A stretch of DNA of 18,161 nt, from positions 1 through 18,161 of the forward strand of contig CAITEL010000030.1 in the NCBI GenBank assembly GCA_903891375.1. Reading direction: 5' to 3'. The first letter of the stretch is position 1. Each line of letters begins with the position of its first letter. The DNA comes from an uncultured Neisseriaceae bacterium. GTDB lineage: Bacteria; Pseudomonadota; Gammaproteobacteria; Burkholderiales; UBA11063. Below are positions 1,952-14,741 of the stretch, piece by piece. The notes under the pieces are model-generated. The model was not told where the DNA came from and ran no database searches. It worked only from the letters and a program-made list of their open reading frames with translations. The translations under genes and the position numbers were made by a program.

Positions 1952-2791
1952 ATGAAGTATAAAATTGGATTTATTGGCGCCAGTAAGACTGGCAGCAACT
2001 TAGTACGATTATGTCAACAATATAACAATTTAATTGATTTAGTTGGGATATATAGTAATTCTAAACTCGCATTAGATGAAACGATCAATATCATTGATAT
2101 ACCTATTGCAACAGATATGTTTCAATTAATTGAATCCAGTGATATTATTTTTATCACCACCAAAGATAATGATATTAGTAAAACATGGGAGTATATACAA
2201 AGCACGCAAACTCGCAAACTCGAACAAATCTTTATCCATTGTAGTGGCTTACTTACCAGTGAAGTGTTCATCAACCACGAGTCTAATGGTGCGTCATTAC
2301 ACCCCATATTTCCATTTAATCGCAAAGATATTCCTCTTGACACATTATCTCAAATACAGTTTTCACTTGAAGGTGGTGATACAGCAATCACATACATTAA
2401 ACCATTATTAGAATTATTAAATCTAAAGTATTTCGTTATAGATAAAACCGTTAAACCAATTTATCATTTTATATGTTTTATTTTATCTAGTGGTGTCACC
2501 GCTTTATTTTCCTACGCCACACAAATAAGTAACAATAGCAACATTGACATATTTAAATTACTACCATTAAGTATCAATGCTATTAATAATTTAACCGAAT
2601 CTAACAACATAACTCAAAGTATGACAGGCCCAATTGCACGTGGTGACATAGACACATTATCTAATTATACAAAATTACTTGAACCAAGCAATTTACCTCC
2701 CTTAAAATTTATTATTGAGCATTTAGTTCCTTTCACCAATCATGAACACAAACAATTATTAATAAAATTTTTAACAACCTTAGAGGAGTAA
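1952..2791 (+). CDS. panG: PanG-type ketopantoate reductase (Rossmann fold plus DUF2520)
   Basis: The 279-residue protein begins with a nucleotide-binding loop (KIGFIGASKTGSN, residues 4-16). It carries the DUF2520 hallmark GASLHPIFPF at about residues 113-122, followed by a helical C-terminal half typical of dehydrogenases of the 6-phosphogluconate type. It is not a PanE (ApbA) sequence. Francisella uses an alternative ketopantoate reductase, PanG, encoded beside panB and panC; the same arrangement is seen here. The predicted reaction is NAD(P)H-dependent reduction of 2-ketopantoate to pantoate in the cytosol. It is the first gene of the operon: its stop is 5 bp before the panB start, and the panB ribosome site (GAGGAG) lies in its last codons. 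DUF2520 alone would not settle the function; the operon context does most of the work. Confidence 0.8.
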   Translation: MKYKIGFIGASKTGSNLVRLCQQYNNLIDLVGIYSNSKLALDETINIIDIPIATDMFQLIESSDIIFITTKDNDISKTWEYIQSTQTRKLEQIFIHCSGLLTSEVFINHESNGASLHPIFPFNRKDIPLDTLSQIQFSLEGGDTAITYIKPLLELLNLKYFVIDKTVKPIYHFICFILSSGVTALFSYATQISNNSNIDIFKLLPLSINAINNLTESNNITQSMTGPIARGDIDTLSNYTKLLEPSNLPPLKFIIEHLVPFTNHEHKQLLIKFLTTLEE

Positions 2792-2796
2792 CGTAC

Positions 2797-3600
2797 ATGA
2801 ATAACTTATCATTTAACATAAATGATTTTGCGAAATTTAAACAACTAAAACAACAAATAAGCATGCTCACTGCCTATGATTATTATTCTGCACAAATATT
2901 AGAAGAAGCAGGTATTAACACTATCTTAGTTGGCGACTCACTTGGAATGGTCATTCAAGGCAATCATGATACTATAGGGGTCACACTTGATGAGATTGTG
3001 TATCATACGAAAGCGGTAAGAAATGGTGCACGTAATACTTTTGTTATTGCCGATATGCCATACTTAACCTACCATACTGATACTAAAGATACAATTAAAA
3101 ATGCAGGTAGATTAATTATTGAGGGCGGAGCTAATGCCGTTAAAGTGGAGATTAATCATTTAAACACTATAAAACATATTGAAGCATTAATAAGTGCACA
3201 AATCCCAGTTATTGGCCATATTGGATTAACTCCTCAATCCGTAAATATGTTTGGTGGCTTTAAAATACAAGGGAAAAATGAACAACAACGTAAACACATA
3301 CTAGAAATAGTTAAACAGCTTGAACACAGTGGTATATGTAGCGTTGTATTAGAATGCATGCCACATCAATTAGCTGAGGAAATAACGCAATTATTAAGCA
3401 TACCCACAATTGGTATTGGCTCTGGAATATTTTGTGATGGACAAGTCTTGGTGTTTCATGATGTATTTGGCTTTAACCAAACTACACCTAAATTTGTTAA
3501 GAAATATATGGATGCCAATACATTAATTAAAAATGCTGTGCGTCAGTATATTGCTGATTTACAAGGAATGCAACCATCGATAAATGTTTCTGTAAACTAA
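2797..3600 (+). CDS. panB: 3-methyl-2-oxobutanoate hydroxymethyltransferase
   Basis: The enzyme transfers a hydroxymethyl group from methylene-tetrahydrofolate to ketoisovalerate, making ketopantoate, the first committed step to pantothenate. The protein has 267 residues, close to the E. coli length. Visible motifs: MLTAYDYYSA (23-32), VGDSLGMV with metal ligand Asp47, ADMPY with Asp86, AVKVE with Lys116 and Glu118, GHIGLTPQS (140-148), and LECMP with the catalytic Glu186. GIGSG at 206-210 is also typical of the TIM barrel. It follows panG by 5 bp and precedes panC by 17 bp. Confidence 0.96.
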   Translation: MNNLSFNINDFAKFKQLKQQISMLTAYDYYSAQILEEAGINTILVGDSLGMVIQGNHDTIGVTLDEIVYHTKAVRNGARNTFVIADMPYLTYHTDTKDTIKNAGRLIIEGGANAVKVEINHLNTIKHIEALISAQIPVIGHIGLTPQSVNMFGGFKIQGKNEQQRKHILEIVKQLEHSGICSVVLECMPHQLAEEITQLLSIPTIGIGSGIFCDGQVLVFHDVFGFNQTTPKFVKKYMDANTLIKNAVRQYIADLQGMQPSINVSVN

Positions 3601-3617
3601 GAAATAGAGGAAAAGTC

Positions 3618-4460
3618 ATGAACATAATTACCGACATAAAAGAAATGCAAGAAACAGCCATTAAATTAAAAAAACAAGATAAAAGTATTGGGTTTGTTCC
3701 TACCATGGGGTATCTACATATAGGTCATAAAGAACTCATCTTAAATGCGCGCAAAACTAATGACATTGTTATTGTCAGCATCTTCGTAAACCCACTACAG
3801 TTTGGAATTAATGAAGATTTAGATAAATACCCACGCAATATTTGTGCTGATACCCAGTTATGTGAATCGATTAATGTTGATTTTTTGTTTATTCCTGATA
3901 CAAGTTCGCTAACCCAAAACCTCTTAATGCAAATACAACCAAGTAGACTTGACCAATATCTTTGTGGGGCAAGTCGCCCTGGACATTTTACTGGTGTATG
4001 CACTATTGTAGCAAAACTATTCAATATTACCCTACCAGATACGGCATATTTTGGTAAAAAAGATATTCAACAATTAAAAATAATAGAACAAATGGTCATG
4101 GACCTCAATATACCAGTGCGGATTATCCCTGTTGAAACAGTTCGTGAACATGATGGGCTAGCTTATAGCTCAAGAAATAGCTATTTAACCCAAAAGGAAC
4201 GTGGTATTGCCACAATAGTCCCCGATGTAATAAATTTGATTACGCAACAAATAAAATCACATCTCGGACGTGAAGAAATTCTAAATAATGCCTTAACATT
4301 TATTGATAACGAGAAATTAGCTCTGGTGAATTATATTGAGATAGTGGATGAAAAAACGCTGGCACCTACTGATGATTTTAAGCAAAATATTGTTATTGCC
4401 GTTGCAATTTATATAGGTAATACCAAATTAATAGATAACCGCTTAATTAAATATACGTAA
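3618..4460 (+). CDS. panC: Pantothenate synthetase (pantoate-beta-alanine ligase)
   Basis: The enzyme joins pantoate and beta-alanine with ATP through a pantoyl-adenylate. The 280-residue sequence shows the nucleotidyltransferase HIGH motif (34-37, in FVPTMGYLHIGHKEL), VNPLQFG (58-63), SRPGHFTGV around 119-127, FGKKD (145-149) and the KMSKS-like loop SSRNSYL (184-190). It is preceded by AGAGGAAAAG. It is the last gene of panGBC; panD, which would supply beta-alanine, is not in the window. The stop is only 4 bp from the stop of the convergent FUSC-like gene, leaving no room for a separate terminator. Confidence 0.96.
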   Translation: MNIITDIKEMQETAIKLKKQDKSIGFVPTMGYLHIGHKELILNARKTNDIVIVSIFVNPLQFGINEDLDKYPRNICADTQLCESINVDFLFIPDTSSLTQNLLMQIQPSRLDQYLCGASRPGHFTGVCTIVAKLFNITLPDTAYFGKKDIQQLKIIEQMVMDLNIPVRIIPVETVREHDGLAYSSRNSYLTQKERGIATIVPDVINLITQQIKSHLGREEILNNALTFIDNEKLALVNYIEIVDEKTLAPTDDFKQNIVIAVAIYIGNTKLIDNRLIKYT

Positions 4461-5643: not shown

Positions 5644-7068
5644 TTAATCTACGTTTTCCTCATCCATTTTGGAATAAGGGCTGTTTTTATTAATTAAATT
5701 AAATTTAGTATAGATTTTATGCCCAAAATATAGAACAAAATATAATATCAATGATGAGTATATCATAATAAAATCAAAAATATTATAATGTTCACCTAAA
5801 GTAATGAATTGCGCAACTATAATAAGAACAATTGCAACCATAGAGATAATCTGTGCCCATGGATAAAATTTAGCTTTATATTTTAATATACCCACACCGC
5901 CTAACTTAGGTAGGATATTTTTTCTAAACTTGTAGTGACTTAATGCAATGCCAAACCAAGCCAAAAATCCACATAAAGCCGAAATTTGTACCAAATAAGT
6001 AAAAACCACACCATTACCGACAAAAGAAGAAATAAATACCACTGAACCAACTAAAGCAGTTAAAATTAATGCAGCAATCGGAATTCCGCGTTTATTTACT
6101 GTAGTAATAAAGTTTGGAGCTTGTTTAATTGTGCCCAAATACCACAATATGCGAGTGGATGAGTACATGCTAGCATTAGCTGCAGAAATTAGCGCAACTA
6201 AAATTACAATATTTATGAAGTTAGCAGCATAAGTACCAATATAATTACTAAACACTAAAGTATACGGACTCATATGTACGTTGTCTTGTGTTGCTAATCG
6301 TGGATCATTATACGCAATTAGTAAACTAATAATCCCTATAGATAATATGTAAAACAGTGTCAAACGCCAAAATACAAGTTTAATCGCTTTAGGAATGCTT
6401 GTTTCTGGGTTTTTAGTTTCCCCTGAGGCAACACCCACTAATTCGGTACCTTGAAAAGAAAATCCAGCAAATAAGAATACTGATATAAAACCAAACCATC
6501 CTTGATGGAATGGTGCATCGCCTATTGTCCAACGTTTAACACCAAATTCTGGTTGATGATATAGCGTCGCTATACCTAATACAATAAATACTATGATAAC
6601 TGCCACTTTTACAAACGAAAGCCAATACTCAACTTCACCGTATACTTTAACCGAGAATAAGTTTGTAATAAAGATTCCCAGAAAAAAGACTATGGAAAAC
6701 CACACAGGATTAATATGCGGAAACCAGTAATTCATAATCAATGCTGCGGCCGAGATCTCAGTTGCAATAGTTATTGCCCAATTAAACCAGTAATTATAAC
6801 CCATGGCAAAACCAAATGATTTGCCTACATATAAATTTGAATAATCACAAAATGAACCTGAACTTGGTTTGAAGGTACTCATTTCTCCAAGACTCGTCAT
6901 TAAAAAATAGACAATCACTGCCATCACAGTATAAGCAACTAAAGCACCACCTGGACCGCCAACAAAAATAGAATAACCACTTGCAAGAAAAATCCCAGTG
7001 CCTATCGAACCACCTATAGCAATCATATTGATCTGGCGTGATTCCAATCGTTGTTGTAAATTTGACAT
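5644..7068 (-). CDS. lysP: LysP-like amino-acid permease (AAT family, APC superfamily)
   Basis: The 474-residue protein has about 12 membrane segments. The first contains the APC signature IAIGGSIGTGIFLASG (16-31). Many blocks closely resemble E. coli LysP as I remember it: GPGGAL, YFLMTSLGEM, WTIGDAPF, FSFQGTELVGVASGE, SPYTLVF and ISHYKFR. The inferred role is proton-coupled uptake of L-lysine across the inner membrane. The last-gene position in the lysine-degradation cluster supports lysine as substrate, though arginine or histidine cannot be excluded from sequence. An 79-bp gap separates it from the dehydrogenase gene upstream, and that gap holds a plausible promoter of its own. The ATG at 7068 has AAAGG upstream. 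Confidence 0.85.
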   Translation of the reverse strand: MSNLQQRLESRQINMIAIGGSIGTGIFLASGYSIFVGGPGGALVAYTVMAVIVYFLMTSLGEMSTFKPSSGSFCDYSNLYVGKSFGFAMGYNYWFNWAITIATEISAAALIMNYWFPHINPVWFSIVFFLGIFITNLFSVKVYGEVEYWLSFVKVAVIIVFIVLGIATLYHQPEFGVKRWTIGDAPFHQGWFGFISVFLFAGFSFQGTELVGVASGETKNPETSIPKAIKLVFWRLTLFYILSIGIISLLIAYNDPRLATQDNVHMSPYTLVFSNYIGTYAANFINIVILVALISAANASMYSSTRILWYLGTIKQAPNFITTVNKRGIPIAALILTALVGSVVFISSFVGNGVVFTYLVQISALCGFLAWFGIALSHYKFRKNILPKLGGVGILKYKAKFYPWAQIISMVAIVLIIVAQFITLGEHYNIFDFIMIYSSLILYFVLYFGHKIYTKFNLINKNSPYSKMDEENVD

Positions 7069-7103
7069 GTGCCAATAACCTTTAAAAATAAAATTTCACA
7101 AGT

Positions 7104-7136
7104 AAGTAGTATACTATACTACTTGAGTAGTTACAA
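7104..7136 (-). promoter_or_regulatory. Putative lysP promoter with palindromic operator over the -10
   Basis: On the minus strand TTGTAA (7136-7131), a 17-bp spacer and TATACT (7113-7108) form a sigma-70-like promoter, 4/6 and 5/6 to consensus. A perfect odd palindrome (arms AAGTAGTATA 7104-7113 and TATACTACTT 7115-7124 around C7114) covers the -10 box and part of the spacer. An overlapping shorter one (CTACT-TG-AGTAG, 7119-7130) lies beside it. A repressor site is the natural reading. Alternatively the palindrome could be a weak hairpin terminator for the gene upstream, since a T-rich run follows about 10 nt later. Confidence 0.45.
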
Positions 7137-7147
7137 ATAATTTGCAG

Positions 7148-10078
7148 TTATCCATATATATCAATTGCCTCGTCATGTACTCGACGAAGTATTTGAATTG
7201 GATGTTTTAATTGCATATTAGCTAAAGATTTAACTTGTGAACGACAAGAATAACCCGTTGCTAAAAATTCTTTATCTGGTGAATTTAGCACATCACCCCA
7301 ATGCATTAAAAATAAATTAGTGCTATTCTCTAAATGTTCCGCTTGATGACCATACGTACCTGCCATACCACAACAACCAAGATTCATAAGGCTTAATTCT
7401 AAACCAAAATAATTAAATATTTTTTGCCATAATTTTGCATCTTGTGGCAAAAGAGATTGTTCTGTGCAATGTGGAAGTAAGCAATATTTTTTTAAAGGTG
7501 ATAATGTTTGGTTAATTTTTTGCACTACATTTAGATTTTCTATTGCCTTTATCAAAAACTCCGCTAAAGTAGCCACCCTGCCAAGTAATGACTCAGCAAA
7601 TTTAACATAATCATCTCTAAACATTAAATTCACACTACTTTCCAGACCTACAACAGGAATACCCTTAATAAAAATAGGATCGAGTAATTCTTTGACTCCA
7701 TGTGCACGTGATTTAAATTTATCTAACCAACCAGCAACAAGGAATGCCTTACCACTTGATTGTGGTAAAAGAACAACTGGCGTATAACCAAAATTTTTTA
7801 AAATCTGGCAACTACTAATTAAAACCTCGTGATTAAGTAAACCAACAAATACATCACTAAAAATTGCAACGGGTTGTGTAAGTCTCTCAAAAATGCTTAT
7901 ATCACCATTGTATATGATTAAATTTTCAGTTGCCATCGTTTTTTTAAACGTTTTTTGTAAAGATAACGCTGGTATCTTATTCATGCCAAACTTTGGATAT
8001 ACGTTACTTTTAAGTATAAAATTCCATAATAATGGAACTTTAGCACCAAAAATCAATATATCTTCTAAATATGCAAGCAGTTTTTCTCGGATAGTTCTTG
8101 ACTCATATTGCGTATAATACGTATTATAAAATTTGCTGCGTAAATCAGGAATACTAACTTGCGTTGGGCATTTACCAGCGCATCCTTTACACCCAAGACA
8201 TCCCTGCATTGCATTAAAAGCCACCTTAGCCGCCTCTTTCGTGTGATAGTTATCATCCCCTAATGTCGATTTAGCTCGTAACCACTCTTTAACCAGCATT
8301 GCTCTACCCTTTGGTGAATGCACTCTATCACTAGTTACCTTATACGATGGACACATGACATTATTTACATCCTGATTAAAACACGCAGCATTACCGTTAC
8401 ATAACATTGACTCTGAATACTCATCTTGTAACGTGCTATTGATTTTTTGATCTAACTCGCCACGCATTGTCACAACATCTATTTTAGTGACTTGATCTAA
8501 GGTATTTTCTGCTGTTACTAATTTACCTGGATTTAATCTATTTGCAGGGTCAAACATTGCTTTTATTTTACGCATAACTTGATATAGAATTGGTCCAAAG
8601 GTATGCTGGGCAAATTCTCCACGATAACCTTTACCATGCTCACCCCATAACAACCCGTGATATTTGTCTGTCAACTTAACTACATCTTCTGTAATTAGAC
8701 GAATATATGCTCTATCTTCACTATCTTTCATATCCAATGCTGGTCGTACATGGACGCAACCCACATCAACATGGCCATACATGGCATAATTAAGATTATA
8801 ACCATCTAATAACTCACGAAATTCAGCAACAAATTTACGTAAATTATGCGGTGGAACTAAAGCATCTTCAACAAAAGCAACTGGTTTACGTGTGCCTGGC
8901 ATTTTACCAACCAAACCTACGGCTAAAGAGCGTATCCCCCATAATTTAGCTATATCCACTGAGTCACGCACGATTCTAAAACGCATATTCTTTTTAATTA
9001 ACTCATTTTCTAAAGAATTAATTTTGTTATTAAGTGACTCTACATTATCTTCAGCGAATTCTGTAAAATTGGAAATACAACTTTCATTTTTATCTAACCC
9101 CATAAGCTCTGCTAACTCAGTCCAAATAGCTAGTGACGTTGCACTTTGTTGCACAATCTCATCCACCGTCTCTATTGCCAAGGGTTTATGCTCAATTAAA
9201 AAACCAGCATCACCCAAAGCATCTAAAAAACTGTCGTAATGGGTAACCACCAAGGCTTTATATTTTAAAATTGGCGTTAACTTCAACTTGGCATTTATGA
9301 TAAATGCCAAAGTACCCTCTGAACCTGAAATAATCTTAGTTAAATCTACCGTATTATTTTGATACGCCTCTTGTAAATTAAACCCTGATAATGGACGTTT
9401 TAATGGAATAAATCTTTTCTCTATTTCGTCCTTTACTGGTACTAAAAGCTCTTTTATTTGTTTTGCTAGTTCAAATGATTTGTTATCTTGTTTTTCATTT
9501 AATAATGCGTCATTAGTTATCGCATTAAAATTAATTATGCTACCATCAAGCATAACACAGGATAGGTCCTCAACATGATTGCTGGTTTTTCCATATACCA
9601 ATGAACCTTTGCCAGCTGAATCATTAGCAATCATACCACCTATTGTAGCTCTATTTTCGGTAGATACATTAGGGGCAAAAAATAACCCATGCGGTTGTAG
9701 AAATTTATTTAATTGACTTAAAACAACCCCTGGCTCAACGATAATGGTCTTAGTAGTTGGGTTAAATTCAAGAATATTATTCATGTAACGTGTGGTATCG
9801 ATTACCACACCTGTTGTTAACGACTGACCATTGGTACCAGTACCACCACCCCTTGCCGTAAATGTAAGTGTTTTAAATTTTTCGGTATTGGCTAATTTAA
9901 ATAACAATTGCACATCTTGTTGATGCTGCGGTTGAATTACACATGAGGGTAGTACCTCATAGATACTATTATCTGTGGCGTTTATCACTAGATTTGCAAA
10001 ATCAGTTAAAATATCACCATGAAAGCCAGCTTGTTCAAGCTCACTTTTAAATTCAAGTTCGATTTGATTGTTTTTCAT
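7148..10078 (-). CDS. ydiJ: YdiJ-type FAD/Fe-S D-2-hydroxyglutarate dehydrogenase
   Basis: The 976-residue protein has the fused layout of E. coli YdiJ (about 1,018 residues). An N-terminal FAD-binding type 4 domain carries ARGGGTGTNGQS (75-86) and NRATIGGMIANDSAGKGS (142-159). An FAD-oxidase C-terminal domain carries YGHVDVGCVHVRP (434-446) and GEHGKG (479-484). Cysteines at 560, 566 and 576 precede an Fe-S region with Cys627, 630, 633 and 637 (GCLGCKGCAGKCP). A CCG-type domain ends with GCCG at 901-904. Relatives oxidise D-2-hydroxyacids, and YdiJ acts on D-2-hydroxyglutarate, passing electrons to the respiratory chain. Here it would turn the HglS product into 2-oxoglutarate. Its ATG overlaps the serC stop by 4 bp (ATGA), implying translational coupling. 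D-lactate is the main alternative substrate. Confidence 0.85.
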   Translation of the reverse strand: MKNNQIELEFKSELEQAGFHGDILTDFANLVINATDNSIYEVLPSCVIQPQHQQDVQLLFKLANTEKFKTLTFTARGGGTGTNGQSLTTGVVIDTTRYMNNILEFNPTTKTIIVEPGVVLSQLNKFLQPHGLFFAPNVSTENRATIGGMIANDSAGKGSLVYGKTSNHVEDLSCVMLDGSIINFNAITNDALLNEKQDNKSFELAKQIKELLVPVKDEIEKRFIPLKRPLSGFNLQEAYQNNTVDLTKIISGSEGTLAFIINAKLKLTPILKYKALVVTHYDSFLDALGDAGFLIEHKPLAIETVDEIVQQSATSLAIWTELAELMGLDKNESCISNFTEFAEDNVESLNNKINSLENELIKKNMRFRIVRDSVDIAKLWGIRSLAVGLVGKMPGTRKPVAFVEDALVPPHNLRKFVAEFRELLDGYNLNYAMYGHVDVGCVHVRPALDMKDSEDRAYIRLITEDVVKLTDKYHGLLWGEHGKGYRGEFAQHTFGPILYQVMRKIKAMFDPANRLNPGKLVTAENTLDQVTKIDVVTMRGELDQKINSTLQDEYSESMLCNGNAACFNQDVNNVMCPSYKVTSDRVHSPKGRAMLVKEWLRAKSTLGDDNYHTKEAAKVAFNAMQGCLGCKGCAGKCPTQVSIPDLRSKFYNTYYTQYESRTIREKLLAYLEDILIFGAKVPLLWNFILKSNVYPKFGMNKIPALSLQKTFKKTMATENLIIYNGDISIFERLTQPVAIFSDVFVGLLNHEVLISSCQILKNFGYTPVVLLPQSSGKAFLVAGWLDKFKSRAHGVKELLDPIFIKGIPVVGLESSVNLMFRDDYVKFAESLLGRVATLAEFLIKAIENLNVVQKINQTLSPLKKYCLLPHCTEQSLLPQDAKLWQKIFNYFGLELSLMNLGCCGMAGTYGHQAEHLENSTNLFLMHWGDVLNSPDKEFLATGYSCRSQVKSLANMQLKHPIQILRRVHDEAIDIYG

Positions 10079-11145
10079 CTATGTTTAGCGGCAAAATCGT
10101 GCATAAATGAAATTAATTTATCTACTCCAGACTCTGGCATGGCATTATATAAACTAGCTCTTAAACCACCCACTGCAATATGTCCTTGTAGGTATTTTAA
10201 TCCATTAGCTATTGCCTCATCTAAAAAATCAACCGATAAAGATTCTTGAGTTAACTCAAAAGGAACATTAATCTGTGAGCGATAAGGTTTTTCTACATTA
10301 TTATAATAAAATTCACTAGTGTCAATATAATTATACAACTTCTCAACTTTTCTTTTATTTATTTTTGCAATTGCAGAAACACCACCTTGAGTAATTAACC
10401 AATCGACCATTAAATCCATTACATATAAAGCGAAAACAGGTACAGTATTGACACTCGAATTACATTCAGAAAGTAATTTATAGTTCCATACATTAGGCAC
10501 AATATCCAAACTACTATTTAACAAGTCATCACGCACAATGACAATCGTCACTCCTGCAATACCCAGATTTTTCTGCGCCGCCGCAAAAATCAGACCAAAT
10601 TTTGAAACATCAATTTCTTCAGATAAAATTGATGAGGTCATATCCGCAATAAGCGTGACATTACCTACATCAGGTACTTGCGAAAACTGAATCCCGTTTA
10701 TAGTTTCATTTGGACAATAATATACATAACTAGCTTTAGGATTTAACTTCCAAGCACTTACATCTGGAATGCCAGTTTTTGTAGATTCGGCAACAATATT
10801 AACATCTGCATATTTAGTAGCAGCATCTATGGCTTTTTTAGACCAAATACCTGTATTAAAATAATCGACATTTTTATTTTGCTTGAGTAAATTCATAGGA
10901 ATACCTGAGAATTGCCCTTGAGCTCCACCTTGCACAAACAGTATTTTGTAATTATGTGGAATATTCATTAGCGTACGAATTTTCTTTTGTAGATTCTCCA
11001 AAAGCTCTTGAAATATCTTAGTTCTGTGACCAAGTTCCATCACAGATACTCCAGTACCACACCAATCAAATATTTCATTTTGAACTTTAGCTAATACTTC
11101 CTCAGGTAACATCGCAGGACCTGCCGCAAAATTATACGCTCTCAT
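10075..11145 (-). CDS. serC: SerC-family aminotransferase, candidate 2-aminoadipate aminotransferase
   Basis: The 356-residue PLP enzyme matches the SerC family along its whole length: NFAAGPAMLPEEVL at the N-terminus, GGAQGQF (73-79), YCPNETINGI, ADMTSS and AAAQKN with the PLP lysine at 192. SerC normally makes phosphoserine from 3-phosphohydroxypyruvate and glutamate. His40 and Arg41, which hold the substrate phosphate, are kept, as is the carboxylate-binding Arg329. The usually invariant GHR motif reads GHI, so one phosphate-binding arginine is replaced by Ile323 (codon at 10177-10179). The gene starts inside the 3' end of the HglS gene (14-bp overlap, own GGAAAG site at 11155-11160) and overlaps the D-2HG dehydrogenase start by 4 bp. 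The position suggests transamination of 2-aminoadipate to 2-oxoadipate; normal serine synthesis, or both roles, remains possible. Confidence 0.85.
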   Translation of the reverse strand: MRAYNFAAGPAMLPEEVLAKVQNEIFDWCGTGVSVMELGHRTKIFQELLENLQKKIRTLMNIPHNYKILFVQGGAQGQFSGIPMNLLKQNKNVDYFNTGIWSKKAIDAATKYADVNIVAESTKTGIPDVSAWKLNPKASYVYYCPNETINGIQFSQVPDVGNVTLIADMTSSILSEEIDVSKFGLIFAAAQKNLGIAGVTIVIVRDDLLNSSLDIVPNVWNYKLLSECNSSVNTVPVFALYVMDLMVDWLITQGGVSAIAKINKRKVEKLYNYIDTSEFYYNNVEKPYRSQINVPFELTQESLSVDFLDEAIANGLKYLQGHIAVGGLRASLYNAMPESGVDKLISFMHDFAAKHR

Positions 11146-11968
11146 TGTCTTTTACTTTCCTATTACTTAGTTTAACATTTGTACTTTCAAATATTTTATC
11201 TGCAGATTTTGCAATAAAACCTTGATATAACTTTCCATTACTTAAAGGATAGCGTTTTGCAAATTCATAATAACTATTTAGTACTTCGAAAATACCTTGT
11301 TTGAATTTTACTAACACCTTATTTGCCATAATACTTGATTGTTCCAAATGCTCTTCTGGAGTACCTTTTATCTCACCTCCTAAACTATTTAACCTATATT
11401 TTTTTTGCTTTAAAAATGTATTTACCGCTTCAATTGTATGAAACTTCTTAAGTTGATTTACCAAAACAGTGAAGTGATTAGCTCTATAACCAAAAACATA
11501 CATCCATGCTGCATATTCTGACTCCGACAATAATTTTTTGTAAACACTGTAATCCAACTCACCCCAACAAGCGCCAGAGTATAATAACTCTAGGGAATTT
11601 AACGTTTTATCTGAAATGGTATCCACACATTTTTTAGCCTGTTGCTGTAAAAATGGGCTAAATTCTTTAGTCTTGAGTTCACTAATAAATACTTTTGGTT
11701 GCAATGGATCTGACTTATGTTCGTAATGTTTTGCGAATAATTTTTTTTCAGCGAACTCATACTCACCACAAGCCACATAACCTAACTGTTCAAAAAACTT
11801 ACCTAGTTTTACTACATTAACTCGTGGGTCATCAAAGGTACGTAACGCAATATGATCATTAACAACCTCTTCACCCTCCTTTTTAAATAAATCAAATATT
11901 TTTAATGCCTGCGGGCTTTCTTGTGTGTATTGATTCCAAAGACAAGAAAATAAATTATTTAGTTCCAT
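11132..11968 (-). CDS. hglS: DUF1338/HglS-type 2-oxoadipate dioxygenase-decarboxylase (short form)
   Basis: The 278-residue protein is a DUF1338 member of the VOC-like Fe(II) oxygenases. P. putida HglS and plant relatives convert 2-oxoadipate plus O2 to D-2-hydroxyglutarate and CO2. The expected residues are present: His39 and Arg43 in DHIALRTF (metal ligand and substrate arginine, spaced four apart as in HglS), His165 in FGYRANHFTVLVN, and probably Glu235 in YYEFAKRYP. ELDYSVY and SLGGEIKGTP are also recognisable. It is much shorter than P. putida HglS (about 460 residues), like many DUF1338 proteins of other bacteria. AAGGAG at 11980-11985 serves the ATG. It follows the aldehyde dehydrogenase gene by 71 bp, which contain a strong hairpin, and overlaps the serC start. 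The neighbours make the 2-oxoadipate assignment strong. Confidence 0.8.
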   Translation of the reverse strand: MELNNLFSCLWNQYTQESPQALKIFDLFKKEGEEVVNDHIALRTFDDPRVNVVKLGKFFEQLGYVACGEYEFAEKKLFAKHYEHKSDPLQPKVFISELKTKEFSPFLQQQAKKCVDTISDKTLNSLELLYSGACWGELDYSVYKKLLSESEYAAWMYVFGYRANHFTVLVNQLKKFHTIEAVNTFLKQKKYRLNSLGGEIKGTPEEHLEQSSIMANKVLVKFKQGIFEVLNSYYEFAKRYPLSNGKLYQGFIAKSADKIFESTNVKLSNRKVKDNESV

Positions 11969-11999
11969 GTATATAAATACTCCTTAATTAAATACTTCA

Positions 12000-12031
12000 A
12001 GTATAATTCCCGCTTGCACGGGAATTATACT
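12000..12031. other. Perfect intercistronic hairpin inside the lysine cluster
   Basis: The arms 12000-12012 and 12019-12031 (AGTATAATTCCCG and its exact complement) form a 13-bp stem with a 6-nt loop. It starts about 9 nt after the aldehyde dehydrogenase stop in transcript sense. No U-tract follows; the next ~15 nt lead into the AAGGAG site of the HglS gene. It looks more like a processing, stability or partial-attenuation element than an intrinsic terminator. Confidence 0.65.
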
Positions 12032-12039
12032 GTCTGATT

Positions 12040-13647
12040 TTATAAATTAAATTGAATACCTTGTGCTAACGTTAATGTCTCACCATAATTAATGGTATTT
12101 GTTTGCCTACGCATATATGCCTTCCACGCATCAGAACCAGCCTCACGACCACCACCAGTATCTTTCTCACCACCAAATGCTCCACCAATTTCGGCACCAG
12201 AGGTACCAATATTAACATTAGCTATTCCACAATCACTTCCTCTAACTGATAAGAATTCTTCCATAACCTTTAAGTCTTCTGTATAAATAGCGGAAGAAAG
12301 ACCATATGCAACTTGATTATTAATAGCAATTGCTTCATCTAATGTTTTATATGACATAACATAAAGTATTGGCGCAAAGGTTTCATGATTTACTATATCC
12401 CAACTCGGATTAGCTTCTACTATCGTAGGTTCTACAAAAAAACCCGCCCCCGGTATCAAATTTCCACCAAAGGCGATTTTACCATTATTTGCCTTAACTT
12501 CAGCAATTGCTTTTTGATAAGCCTCAACCGATTGTTTATCAATCAATGGTCCCATATGGTTGTTTTGATCCATCGGATCGCCTACTTTTAATTGCTTATA
12601 AGCATTAACCAAGCTCTCCACAGTTTGCTTGTATAAACTTTCATGTACAATTAAGCGCCTCAGTGTAGTACACCTCTGACCTGCCGTACCAATTGCCGAA
12701 AAGACTAATGAAGGGATGGCTGTTTTTAGATTAGCACTTTTATCCACAATGACTGCATTATTACCACCAAGTTCTAATATAGAACGAGCAAATCTGGCTG
12801 CCAAACGTTTACCTACCTCCCTACCTACTGGCGTTGAACCTGTAAATGAAACCAAAGCTAATCGTTTATCATCAACAAATTTTTGTGAAAAGGCAACATC
12901 ATCTGAGGTAACTAAAGAGAATATTGCTGGGTAATTATTTTCTGTCAATACTTGGGTACAAATTTTATGTACAGCTATTGCACATAGTGGTGTCTTAGGT
13001 GAAGCTTTCCACACCACCGTATTACCACAAATTGCGGCAACAAATGCATTCCATGCCCAAACTGCAACAGGAAAGTTGAAAGCGGAGATAACACCAACAA
13101 CCCCCAGCGGATGCCATTGTTCGTACATTCTGTGGTTTTCACGTTCAGAATGCATTGTGTTCCCGTACAGCATACGTGACTGACCAACTGCAAAATCTGC
13201 CATATCAATCATTTCTTGAACCTCACCATCACCTTCTTGTTTGGACTTACCCATTTCAGCTGACACCAATGAACCTAATACTGATTTGTATTTACGTAAC
13301 CGCTCACCTATTAACCGAATGAATTCTCCACGTTTAGGGGCAGGGATATTTCTCCATATCAAAAAAGCACCTTGCGCAACATCTAAAACACTCTCTAATT
13401 GTTCATTGCTTGTGGTTTGAATTGAACCTAAAACATCTTCATTAGTTGGACAAATTGATGTTAGAAGATTATCACTAGCTAACCAATGTGTTCCAGCTGC
13501 TGTACCTGCATGTTTGTCATGAATATCTAGTGTACTTAATAACTCTTTTATAGAGAACTCTTTACTCAACATCTCAATTTCTCCAATACTGCGTACATCT
13601 GAAGCTAATGAACTAGTATTTAATTCTTTATTGGTATTTAAACTCAT
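12040..13647 (-). CDS. amaB: Alpha-aminoadipate semialdehyde dehydrogenase (antiquitin/ALDH7 type)
   Basis: The 535-residue NAD-dependent aldehyde dehydrogenase oxidises 2-aminoadipate 6-semialdehyde (in equilibrium with piperideine-6-carboxylate) to 2-aminoadipate. The general catalytic set is clear: Asn191 in AFNFP, Lys214 in VVWKASP, Glu292 in LELGGNN and the nucleophile Cys326 in [13 protein letters not shown]. What makes it antiquitin rather than a generic family member is the C-terminal block [19 protein letters not shown] followed by [14 protein letters not shown], and PAPKRGE near residue 102. It has some 25 more N-terminal residues than human antiquitin's mature form, so initiation at Met26 is conceivable, but the first ATG overlaps the upstream stop (ATGA) with AAGG in the preceding codons, which favours coupled translation. 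Confidence 0.92.
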
Positions 13648-14741
13648 ACTCTAATACCTTTTGCATAATATGAACCAAATCGATTACCTAAAAATTCTGG
13701 TAAAGAAATTTGTTCTTGTTTAATCAAACCAGTTAAACGTTTTTCATGCATTACTAAATCAATGACAGTACAAATACCTGCGGCTGTTGTCATTTGTATG
13801 GCTGTATACGTATTATCATCAACAGTCACTGGGTATAGTGTATTTGTATATGTTTTTTCACTAAAGTTACCGTTTTTATTACCTTGCACTGAAACATATA
13901 CTACAACCTTGTCATCTTCAGCATGTGGTATTACTTTTGATAAAATTTGTTTAGCTAATTCTGGTTTTTCTCGCAATTTCAAATCATTTAAAATAAATGA
14001 CATCTTTGTACAATGACCTTGATAACGCATTGTCTTATAGTCCATATTTTTCACTTTTCCCGCATAACTTTCAACCAATGAACCAACGCCACCTGAGGTA
14101 TGAAACGCTTCGTATGGATGATTTTCAACAATAATAGTTTCTAAATCACCAAGTGCTGGTTTAAGTTTACGCTCTCCATTTTCAATGACTACACAGGGGT
14201 GAATATATTCATTTACAACACCATCAACAGACCATGTAAACGCATAGTTTAGGCTATTTGAAGTATTTTGCGTCAATGCTCCAACACGCATCTTCACATT
14301 ATCAACATCTTCAAAACCCTCCATTAATGAATTAGCTGCAATACTTATAAAACCAGGCGCCAAGCCACATTGAGGTGCAAATGAACCTTTGCTATTTTTA
14401 GATAGTTCGTACACTGCATTAGTAGTTGCAACATCTTCTGTTGGATCGAAATAATCTATACCACACTCACTTGCTATCTTGGCTACTTCAATAGTTAAAT
14501 TAAATGGTAAGCAAGATACAACGCCTTGAATCTGGTTAGATTTTATATAATTTTTAATCGCATCTGCCTTTTTTATATCCATAGGGATGAATTGAATTGG
14601 ATTATTTTTTATTTGCGGAAGAGTATGTGGCGGATTTACGTCTCCAATAAAAGCCTCGTAATCTCCAGTACGTGCAAGCAATCCCGCAACTGTTGTTCCA
14701 ATTTTTCCTGCTCCAAGTATTAAAATTTTGTGTTTTATCAT
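13644..14741 (-). CDS. lysDH: Lysine 6-dehydrogenase-like oxidoreductase (saccharopine dehydrogenase family)
   Basis: The 365-residue protein starts with a Rossmann loop ([18 protein letters not shown]). It then shows blocks of the saccharopine dehydrogenase family: [19 protein letters not shown], the [10 protein letters not shown] turn (~129-138), [12 protein letters not shown] and [11 protein letters not shown]. The last two closely resemble Geobacillus L-lysine 6-dehydrogenase as I recall it, and the length fits LysDH. That enzyme deaminates L-lysine at the epsilon position with NAD, giving AASA/P6C directly. No lysine-ketoglutarate reductase is encoded nearby, which also favours LysDH over a true saccharopine dehydrogenase, since the latter would lack its substrate. 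It is the promoter-proximal gene; GAGAGA lies upstream of the ATG, and its stop overlaps the next start by 4 bp. Confidence 0.78.

What the first reader, a model, noticed from the sequence alone, without database searches (positions are those of the whole stretch)
5644..14741. A self-contained lysine-to-2-oxoglutarate operon in near pathway order, including uptake
Seen: six consecutive minus-strand genes encode a LysDH-like enzyme, an antiquitin-type AASA dehydrogenase, a DUF1338/HglS oxygenase, a SerC-family aminotransferase, a YdiJ-type dehydrogenase and a LysP-like permease, with overlaps of 4, 14 and 4 bp. Known: LysDH makes AASA/P6C, ALDH7 makes 2-aminoadipate, HglS makes D-2-hydroxyglutarate from 2-oxoadipate, and YdiJ oxidises D-2-hydroxyglutarate. 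Inference: the cluster degrades external L-lysine to 2-oxoglutarate without racemisation to D-lysine, cadaverine, saccharopine or acyl-CoA intermediates. This differs from the Pseudomonas route, where D-lysine feeds the HglS branch, and no step is left unassigned.
Basis: partly seen in the sequence, partly recalled or inferred. Interest (0 to 1): 0.88.

Follow-up and report, generated by a model that had tools for sequence, protein, structure and literature searches.

The report
Lysine-degradation operon docked on serine genes
A bacterium, probably a relative of the tap-water genus Aquella, carries what looks like a gene set for taking up lysine and burning it to 2-oxoglutarate, apparently built by attaching three lysine genes to two serine-making genes, one of which has a changed active-site residue.

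Summary
The six genes and their overlaps are real. Homology supports L-lysine 6-dehydrogenase, piperideine-6-carboxylate dehydrogenase, HglS (HHE triad plus arginine kept), a YdiJ-like D-2-hydroxyglutarate dehydrogenase and a LysP-like permease (both below curated cut-offs). No PF05222 (LKR-type) match in the genome. An L-lysine to 2-oxoglutarate route is the best reading; nothing was assayed.

SerC's place is overstated. It is the genome's only SerC match. Genus members without the cassette also have SerC-YdiJ, in five followed by a SerB-SerA fusion: a serine operon. The recurrent lysine unit is LysDH-ALDH7-HglS, also found in another family of the class. SerC and YdiJ look like serine genes onto which the cassette docked at the shared D-2-hydroxyglutarate node.

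Against a purely housekeeping SerC: its phosphate-anchoring Arg/Lys is I, M or A in 9 of 10 cassette carriers with a readable residue, Lys in 8 of 8 non-carriers, though this reflects only about two evolutionary events. A SerC serving phosphoserine and 2-aminoadipate is my boldest reading, at slightly under even odds. New variant of known kinds.

The parts
13644..14741 (-). LysDH: L-lysine 6-dehydrogenase-like protein (365 aa), predicted L-lysine to AASA/P6C
   Evidence: Sacchrp_dh_NADP and Sacchrp_dh_C domains; best PDB profile hit 3abi, E 3.2e-34; AF2 model pLDDT 90.1, best fold 3abi 'L-Lysine Dehydrogenase', TM 0.82/0.86
12040..13647 (-). ALDH7/antiquitin-type L-piperidine-6-carboxylate (AASA) dehydrogenase (535 aa)
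   Evidence: NF050084 754.9 bits over cut-off 730; PDB hits include antiquitin and ALDH7A1; Cys326 and Glu292 located by motif (catalytic roles recalled)
11132..11968 (-). HglS-type 2-oxoadipate dioxygenase/decarboxylase (278 aa), short form
   Evidence: PF07063 91 bits over cut-off 25; PDB 3lho and 6w1k, the latter named hydroxyglutarate synthase; H39, R43, H165, E235 present in 26 of 26 aligned sequences, window included
10075..11145 (-). SerC-family aminotransferase (356 aa); only SerC match in the genome; I323 at the position of E. coli R329
   Evidence: TIGR01364 464.8 over 443.6; single match; residue analysis
7148..10078 (-). YdiJ-like FAD / Fe-S D-2-hydroxyglutarate dehydrogenase (976 aa)
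   Evidence: Best family NF049975, 1047 bits, below cut-off 1350; FAD_binding_4 and FAD-oxidase_C, weak 4Fe-4S matches below cut-off
5644..7068 (-). LysP-like lysine permease (474 aa)
   Evidence: Best PDB hit 9eyd 'Lysine-specific permease' 424 bits, next hit 38; best NCBIfam PRK10836 440.8 bits, below cut-off 735
12000..12031 (.). 13-bp-stem palindrome between ALDH7 and HglS
   Evidence: the only place in the genome matching the exact pattern

Best explanation
It is a lysine-catabolic operon. LysP takes up L-lysine. LysDH removes its epsilon-amino group, giving AASA/P6C. The antiquitin-type dehydrogenase oxidises this to 2-aminoadipate. An aminotransferase, possibly the operon's own SerC, makes 2-oxoadipate. 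HglS turns that with O2 into D-2-hydroxyglutarate and CO2. YdiJ oxidises this to 2-oxoglutarate. SerC and YdiJ appear to be a serine-biosynthesis pair in origin (E. coli-type SerA also makes D-2-hydroxyglutarate, which YdiJ removes). A three-gene cassette LysDH-ALDH7-HglS lies upstream of them, so that one dehydrogenase would serve two sources of D-2-hydroxyglutarate. SerC, single-copy and still needed for serine, may be bifunctional after losing the phosphate-anchoring Arg/Lys at E. coli position 329. Basis: all enzyme assignments are homology-inferred; the docking follows from comparative synteny; the second role of SerC is a hypothesis (about 0.4-0.45 on its own; the confidence below is for the pathway as a whole, whichever aminotransferase acts). 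If 2-oxoglutarate is the amino acceptor, the net output is glutamate plus ammonia and CO2 (inference).
For: LysDH: 3abi is the best sequence profile hit and best fold, ahead of saccharopine and carboxyspermidine dehydrogenases; PMC10413350 passages name 3ABI an L-lysine 6-dehydrogenase. No PF05222 match (the family I chose for LKR-type proteins) in the 94%-complete genome, while 7 of 14 controls ring. ALDH7: equivalog cut-off passed. HglS: HHE plus Arg in 26 of 26 aligned sequences, the residues that PMC7286885 ties to the 2-oxoadipate reaction. LysDH and HglS co-occur in the genus: both in 11 of 23 genomes, neither in 11, LysDH alone in 1 (G001, 58% complete). Cassette order in 9 of 11 genus carriers and in G353, G109, G248 of one other family. 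HglS-YdiJ neighbours also in G388 and G049. Serine origin of SerC-YdiJ: SerC-YdiJ-SerBA contiguous in G002, G006, G013, G020, G022; PMC9504171 abstract on SerA and YdiJ. SerC residue 329: I, M or A in 9 of 10 carriers with a readable residue, Lys in 8 of 8 non-carriers with a SerC; one of 2 of 356 columns separating 9 carriers from 8 non-carriers with at most one exception.
Against: No enzyme, growth or expression data. YdiJ and LysP fall below their curated cut-offs, and LysDH reaches no NCBIfam family of its own. The second PDB profile hit of LysDH, 3ic5, is named 'putative saccharopine dehydrogenase'. G015 has the cassette next to a SerC with Lys329. The carriers of the other family have SerC with Arg329, 3 of 3, so the cassette does not need a changed SerC. 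On the SerC tree cassette and charge each change about twice, the independent-pairs test has one or two pairs and is not significant, and the non-carrier G014 is a long branch of unsure place. Position 175, the other separating column, does not switch together with 329 in 120 SerCs. Several non-carriers are incomplete (59-88% for four of the eight with a SerC), so absence of the cassette there is less certain. The genome holds other aminotransferases: a truncated aspartate-type one and three class III, named by eye.
Confidence: 0.72

Rival explanations
1. SerC is only the housekeeping phosphoserine aminotransferase and YdiJ is chiefly the partner of SerA; the lysine cassette merely shares YdiJ, and 2-aminoadipate is transaminated by a general aminotransferase (aspartate-type or ArgD-like) encoded elsewhere.
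For: Single SerC match in the genome; SerB-SerA fusion present, so a SerC is needed; SerC-YdiJ in non-carriers; carriers with SerC away from the cassette (G005, G016, G019); SerC family cut-offs passed; G015 and the other-family carriers keep Lys or Arg at 329; other aminotransferases exist.
Against: The phosphate-anchoring Arg/Lys is replaced in 9 of 10 carriers and in 0 of 8 non-carriers; HglS is directly upstream of SerC in 5 of 11 carriers, with a 14-bp overlap in the window; in 6 of 6 carriers with SerC-YdiJ by the cassette whose YdiJ downstream flank was read, the SerB-SerA fusion is not next to it.
Confidence: 0.42
2. The LysDH-AASADH part serves mainly to make 2-aminoadipate as an osmolyte, as described for the Ruegeria pomeroyi lysine dehydrogenase pathway, and HglS/YdiJ only drain the excess.
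For: PMC4334477 passages: R. pomeroyi has lysdh (SPO0234) and aasadh (SPO0235), prefers the lysine dehydrogenase pathway at high salt, leading to aminoadipate, and several genes of its lysine pathways were verified. LysDH-ALDH7 stand together without HglS in G060.
Against: HglS is in 11 of the 12 LysDH-bearing genus genomes; the described isolate, A. oligotrophica, came from tap water (PMC6612550 abstract), not a saline habitat.
Confidence: 0.12
3. The dehydrogenase is a saccharopine dehydrogenase and the route runs through saccharopine.
For: Both Pfam domains are named saccharopine dehydrogenase; the second PDB profile hit, 3ic5, bears the depositor's name 'putative saccharopine dehydrogenase'.
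Against: Best sequence and structure match is a lysine 6-dehydrogenase; 365 aa against 435-449 residues in the saccharopine dehydrogenase/reductase structures listed; no PF05222 match in the genome (94% complete).
Confidence: 0.05

Closest known systems
LysDH-AASADH pathway of Ruegeria pomeroyi (SPO0234-SPO0235)
   Same: Neighbouring lysine dehydrogenase and AASA dehydrogenase genes, described as a route apart from the saccharopine pathway (PMC4334477 passages).
   Different: The passages read name no HglS, D-2-hydroxyglutarate step or serine genes; there aminoadipate is described as an osmolyte.
Pseudomonas putida D-lysine pathway with HglS
   Same: 2-oxoadipate to D-2-hydroxyglutarate by an HglS (PMC7286885).
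   Different: There HglS is in D-lysine catabolism; here the predicted entry is L-lysine epsilon-deamination. The window HglS is 278 aa and its second PDB hit is 6w1k, named hydroxyglutarate synthase, which I take to be the plant FLO7 structure (recalled); no further HglS chain was among the three PDB hits.
Plant lysine catabolism (LKR/SDH, AASADH, FLO7)
   Same: 2-oxoadipate to 2-hydroxyglutarate by FLO7 (PMC7286885), below AASA and 2-aminoadipate.
   Different: Plants enter through saccharopine with a bifunctional LKR/SDH (start of the PMC7253579 abstract); here a single LysDH.
SerA-YdiJ link in serine synthesis (E. coli, Pantoea ananatis)
   Same: E. coli-type SerA and a YdiJ-like enzyme; in five genus members SerC, YdiJ and a SerB-SerA fusion lie together.
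   Different: Here YdiJ also stands next to a second predicted source of D-2-hydroxyglutarate, HglS.

Membership tests
L-lysine 6-dehydrogenase | Closest to a characterised LysDH rather than saccharopine/carboxyspermidine dehydrogenases in sequence and fold | tested here: met
L-lysine 6-dehydrogenase | NAD(P)-dependent epsilon-deamination of L-lysine | not testable with these tools
   needs an enzyme assay
L-piperidine-6-carboxylate / AASA dehydrogenase (ALDH7) | NCBIfam equivalog NF050084 cut-off 730 | tested here: met
   754.9 bits
HglS / DUF1338 | PF07063 membership and HHE triad plus substrate Arg | tested here: met
Phosphoserine aminotransferase (SerC) | TIGR01364 and PRK05355 cut-offs | tested here: met
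   464.8 over 443.6; 490.1 over 253
Phosphoserine aminotransferase (SerC) | Four-residue phosphate anchor His-Arg-His-Arg (human His44, Arg45, His335, Arg336) | tested here: not met
   H40, R41 and H322 kept, the fourth is I323
YdiJ D-2-hydroxyglutarate dehydrogenase | NF049975 equivalog cut-off 1350 | tested here: not met
   1047 bits, best family by far; probably works like one, not filed as a proven member
LysP lysine permease | PRK10836 cut-off 735 | tested here: not met
   440.8 bits; nearest solved structure is a lysine-specific permease, 9eyd
Saccharopine pathway | An LKR-type partner (tested with PF05222) | tested here: not met
   no match in own genome, 94% complete

The most novel reading that the evidence does not exclude
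A single-copy SerC has become a dual-purpose aminotransferase for phosphoserine and 2-aminoadipate by losing the fourth phosphate-anchoring Arg/Lys, while a LysDH-ALDH7-HglS cassette docked on the SerC-YdiJ serine pair, so that lysine breakdown and serine synthesis share one aminotransferase and one D-2-hydroxyglutarate sink.
Probability: 0.4. Interest if true: 0.65.

Novelty: new variant of a known kind. Interest (0 to 1): 0.5.

Why it matters
It would be a bacterial L-lysine to 2-oxoglutarate route that enters by LysDH and leaves by HglS, without racemisation, cadaverine, saccharopine or glutaryl-CoA. It would also show how such a route can assemble: by docking a three-gene cassette onto the cell's existing D-2-hydroxyglutarate recycling in serine synthesis. 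The SerC position gives a one-residue, directly testable hypothesis about substrate range. One carrier, G016, has exactly the chromosome length of the cultured type strain Aquella oligotrophica P08 (2,820,660 bp), so the pathway prediction can be tested in a living strain.

Tried and rejected
A lysine riboswitch or other Rfam RNA: none at gathering threshold. tRNAs: none. A promoter signal: promoter-like sites no more frequent than in shuffles, 51 against a mean of 54.7. Saccharopine route: rejected as main reading. The idea that the aminotransferase gene is dedicated to lysine: rejected, SerC is the only SerC match and occurs with YdiJ in non-carriers. The idea that columns 175 and 329 of SerC switch together: not borne out in 120 proteins. 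Statistical support for the cassette-residue link by independent pairs: not significant, one pair on starred branches, two on all. Looking for another aminotransferase: the eight PF00155 matches are HisC, a BioF-like protein, four sugar-aminotransferase-like proteins, SHMT and one fragment at a contig end that I name aspartate-type by eye; the three PF00202 matches look like ArgD, BioA and HemL by eye only; PF01063 was not searched. Papers on a bacterial LysDH plus HglS operon: none seen in the listings (openly licensed papers only, listings of 3 to 25 rows). The 2013 lysine-catabolism survey cited in PMC4334477 and the LysDH structure paper are not held, nor is the DOI that I recalled for the P. 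putida HglS paper.
Full report
What is there. One search confirms six consecutive minus-strand ORFs at 5644-14741 with overlaps of 4, 14 and 4 bp and gaps of 71 and 79 bp. The window is the whole of contig C30 as held, in a 2.08 Mb assembly of 422 contigs, 94.3% complete. Twenty-two further genomes of the same genus are held. One of them, G016, is a single chromosome of 2,820,660 bp, the length given in the abstract of the Aquella oligotrophica P08 description (PMC6612550), so the genus is very probably Aquella as GTDB draws it.

Enzyme assignments. LysDH: the two saccharopine-dehydrogenase domains do not decide the function. A 16-sequence profile hits 3abi best (E 3.2e-34); second is 3ic5, a 118-residue domain named putative saccharopine dehydrogenase (1.1e-26); human saccharopine dehydrogenase follows at 1e-13. 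The predicted structure (pLDDT 90.1) matches 3abi, titled L-lysine dehydrogenase, with TM 0.82/0.86, ahead of saccharopine and carboxyspermidine dehydrogenases. Passages of PMC10413350 name 3ABI an L-lysine 6-dehydrogenase. ALDH7 passes the equivalog cut-off for L-piperidine-6-carboxylate dehydrogenase, 754.9 against 730. HglS passes PF07063 and is similar to 3lho and 6w1k. Its H39, R43, H165 and E235 are present in 26 of 26 aligned sequences (window plus 25 loci; the four weakest class matches were not included). I place them as the HHE triad and substrate arginine by their alignment with 6w1k and the H-x3-R spacing; the P. putida residue numbers of the triad are recalled. PMC7286885 (outline and abstract, part 2 of the results, discussion, find passages) predicts the 2-oxoadipate to 2-hydroxyglutarate reaction for proteins with these residues. 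YdiJ has the FAD domains and weak Fe-S matches and scores best with NF049975 but below its cut-off (1047 against 1350). The permease is below the PRK10836 cut-off, but the LysP structure 9eyd is its nearest solved relative by far, 424 bits against 38. No PF05222 match, the family I used for LKR, is found in the genome, while 7 of 14 control genomes ring.

The cassette. HglS occurs in 11 of 23 genus genomes and LysDH in 12 of 23, own genome included; all 11 HglS carriers have LysDH, and the twelfth (G001) is only 58% complete. LysDH-ALDH7-HglS stand together in that order in 9 of the 11 (G000, G003, G005, G008, G009, G011, G015, G016, G019; in G008 with an 852-bp gap after LysDH). G021 is split over two contigs with an unrelated ORF before HglS, and in G017 HglS has a cytochrome bd-like gene (named by eye) where ALDH7 would be. 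In the wider class, 16 of 369 genomes searched have an HglS match, own genome included. I fetched the regions of 11 of the other 15 (the four weakest were left out): G353, G109 and G248, all of one other family, have LysDH-ALDH7-HglS contiguous; G388 has HglS-YdiJ; G199, G407 and G085 have HglS after ArgD-, AstA- and AstD-like genes (named by eye and by weak ALDH similarity); in G380, G163, G280 and G091 neither LysDH nor YdiJ was seen in the stretch read. In the order-level set, G054 has HglS-LysDH-ALDH7 and G049 has YdiJ next to a long, distant HglS.

SerC and YdiJ look like older serine genes. SerC is the only SerC match of the own genome, and 52 of 61 genomes of the relatives set, own included, have a match, two of them (G005, G009) at least partly as fragments. 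The own genome also encodes a 630-aa protein with an N-terminal HAD-IB/SerB-like domain (SerB model 58 bits, below its cut-off 144) and a C-terminal E. coli-type SerA (NF008759 637 bits against 404). Open frames of 629-638 codons holding both matches appear in 15 of 23 genus genomes; most of the others are cut by contig ends or incomplete. In five genus members without the cassette (G002, G006, G013, G020, G022) SerC, YdiJ and this fusion are contiguous (in G002 the fusion is cut by the contig end); G010 is consistent with that across two contigs. SerC-YdiJ is adjacent in 15 genus genomes. In G016 and G019 SerC stands apart, YdiJ is next to the fusion with one ORF between, and the cassette is elsewhere. 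In the six carriers with SerC-YdiJ by the cassette whose YdiJ downstream flank was read (G000, G003, G008, G011, G015, G021) the fusion is not next to it; in G015 it lies about 8 kb away, and in G003 no SerA over the cut-off was found. G014 (no cassette found, 88% complete) has SerC-YdiJ next to the PHP- and ProC-like genes that in G015 lie on the other side of the cassette, resembling a locus without and with the cassette. The abstract of PMC9504171 (two passages) reports that SerA can make D-2-hydroxyglutarate and that loss of ydiJ lets it accumulate. So the pair is best read as part of serine synthesis, and the cassette shares its D-2-hydroxyglutarate sink. HglS lies directly upstream of SerC in 5 of 11 carriers (G000, G003, G009, G011, G015), with two inserted ORFs in 2 (G008, G021), not adjacent in 3 (G005, G016, G019), unresolved in G017.

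The SerC active site. PMC10031235 passages give the phosphate anchor of human PSAT as His44, Arg45, His335 and Arg336, with Arg336 flexible, at the entrance, and perhaps locking the substrate. The window SerC keeps the first three (H40, R41, H322) and the alpha-carboxylate arginine (R329) but has I323 for the fourth, E. coli R329. In genus carriers the residue is I (G000, G005, G008, G016, G019, G021), A (G009, G011), M (G003) or K (G015): uncharged in 9 of 10 with a readable residue; the eleventh carrier, G017, has no SerC match. In the eight non-carriers with a SerC it is K in 8 of 8. In 20 SerCs from outside the genus it is R or K in 20, and R in 3 of 3 of the other-family carriers; 23 further matches had no locus and were not read. 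Column 329 is one of 2 of 356 columns that separate 9 carriers (G005 not included) from 8 non-carriers with at most one exception. Against over-reading: on the SerC tree built without that column, cassette and charge change about twice each, and the independent-pairs test has one or two pairs and no significance. Carriers form a grade at the base of the genus on that tree, so loss of an ancestral cassette is one reading. In the 120 nearest SerCs, whose cassette status I could not look up, the residue is K or R in 70 and I, A, M, V, S, L, H or Q in 50, with at least 9 changes of charge.

Reading. The predicted flow is L-lysine, AASA/P6C, 2-aminoadipate, 2-oxoadipate, D-2-hydroxyglutarate, 2-oxoglutarate. 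Steps 1, 2, 4 and 5 have homologues of characterised enzymes; step 3 is the weak link. A SerC serving both phosphoserine and 2-aminoadipate fits gene position and the changed residue. A general aminotransferase elsewhere fits the carriers with distant SerC, G015, and the other-family carriers with Arg329. I give the bifunctional SerC slightly under even odds.

Novelty. In the listings of openly licensed papers that I searched I saw none describing a bacterial LysDH plus HglS operon. Each enzyme is known, LysDH-AASADH is known from Ruegeria (PMC4334477 passages), and the lower half is known from Pseudomonas and plants (PMC7286885). I rate it a new variant of known kinds.

Noticed in passing
G000:C87:6420-8309 (L177:6420-8309): SerB-like HAD phosphatase domain fused to E. 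coli-type SerA in one 630-aa protein; open frames with both matches in 15 of 23 genus genomes.
   Followed up: partly
window 12000-12031: Palindrome with a 13-bp stem in the 71-bp gap between ALDH7 and HglS; unique in the genome by exact pattern. Possible mRNA processing or attenuation site.
   Followed up: partly
L036:9074-9877 and L038:4267-5070: G016 (A. oligotrophica by length) and G019 carry a second, stand-alone HglS gene besides the cassette copy.
   Followed up: no
L030:10226-12021; L031:3249-4999: Two-gene insert between HglS and SerC in G008 and G021: in G008 an ATPase-like protein with weak matches to MADS3 and retron Eco8 effector models, plus a 163-aa protein.
   Followed up: no
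L170, L171, L173: HglS follows genes resembling ArgD, AstA and AstD (arginine succinyltransferase route; named by eye) in three other genomes of the class; hints at an HglS role linked to that operon.
   Followed up: no
window 1952-4460: DUF2520 protein next to ORFs that read as panB and panC (by eye); recalled as the PanG-type ketopantoate reductase arrangement of Francisella.
   Followed up: no
G000:C296 (L183): Start of an aspartate-type class I aminotransferase cut off by the contig end; a candidate alternative 2-aminoadipate aminotransferase (named by eye).
   Followed up: partly
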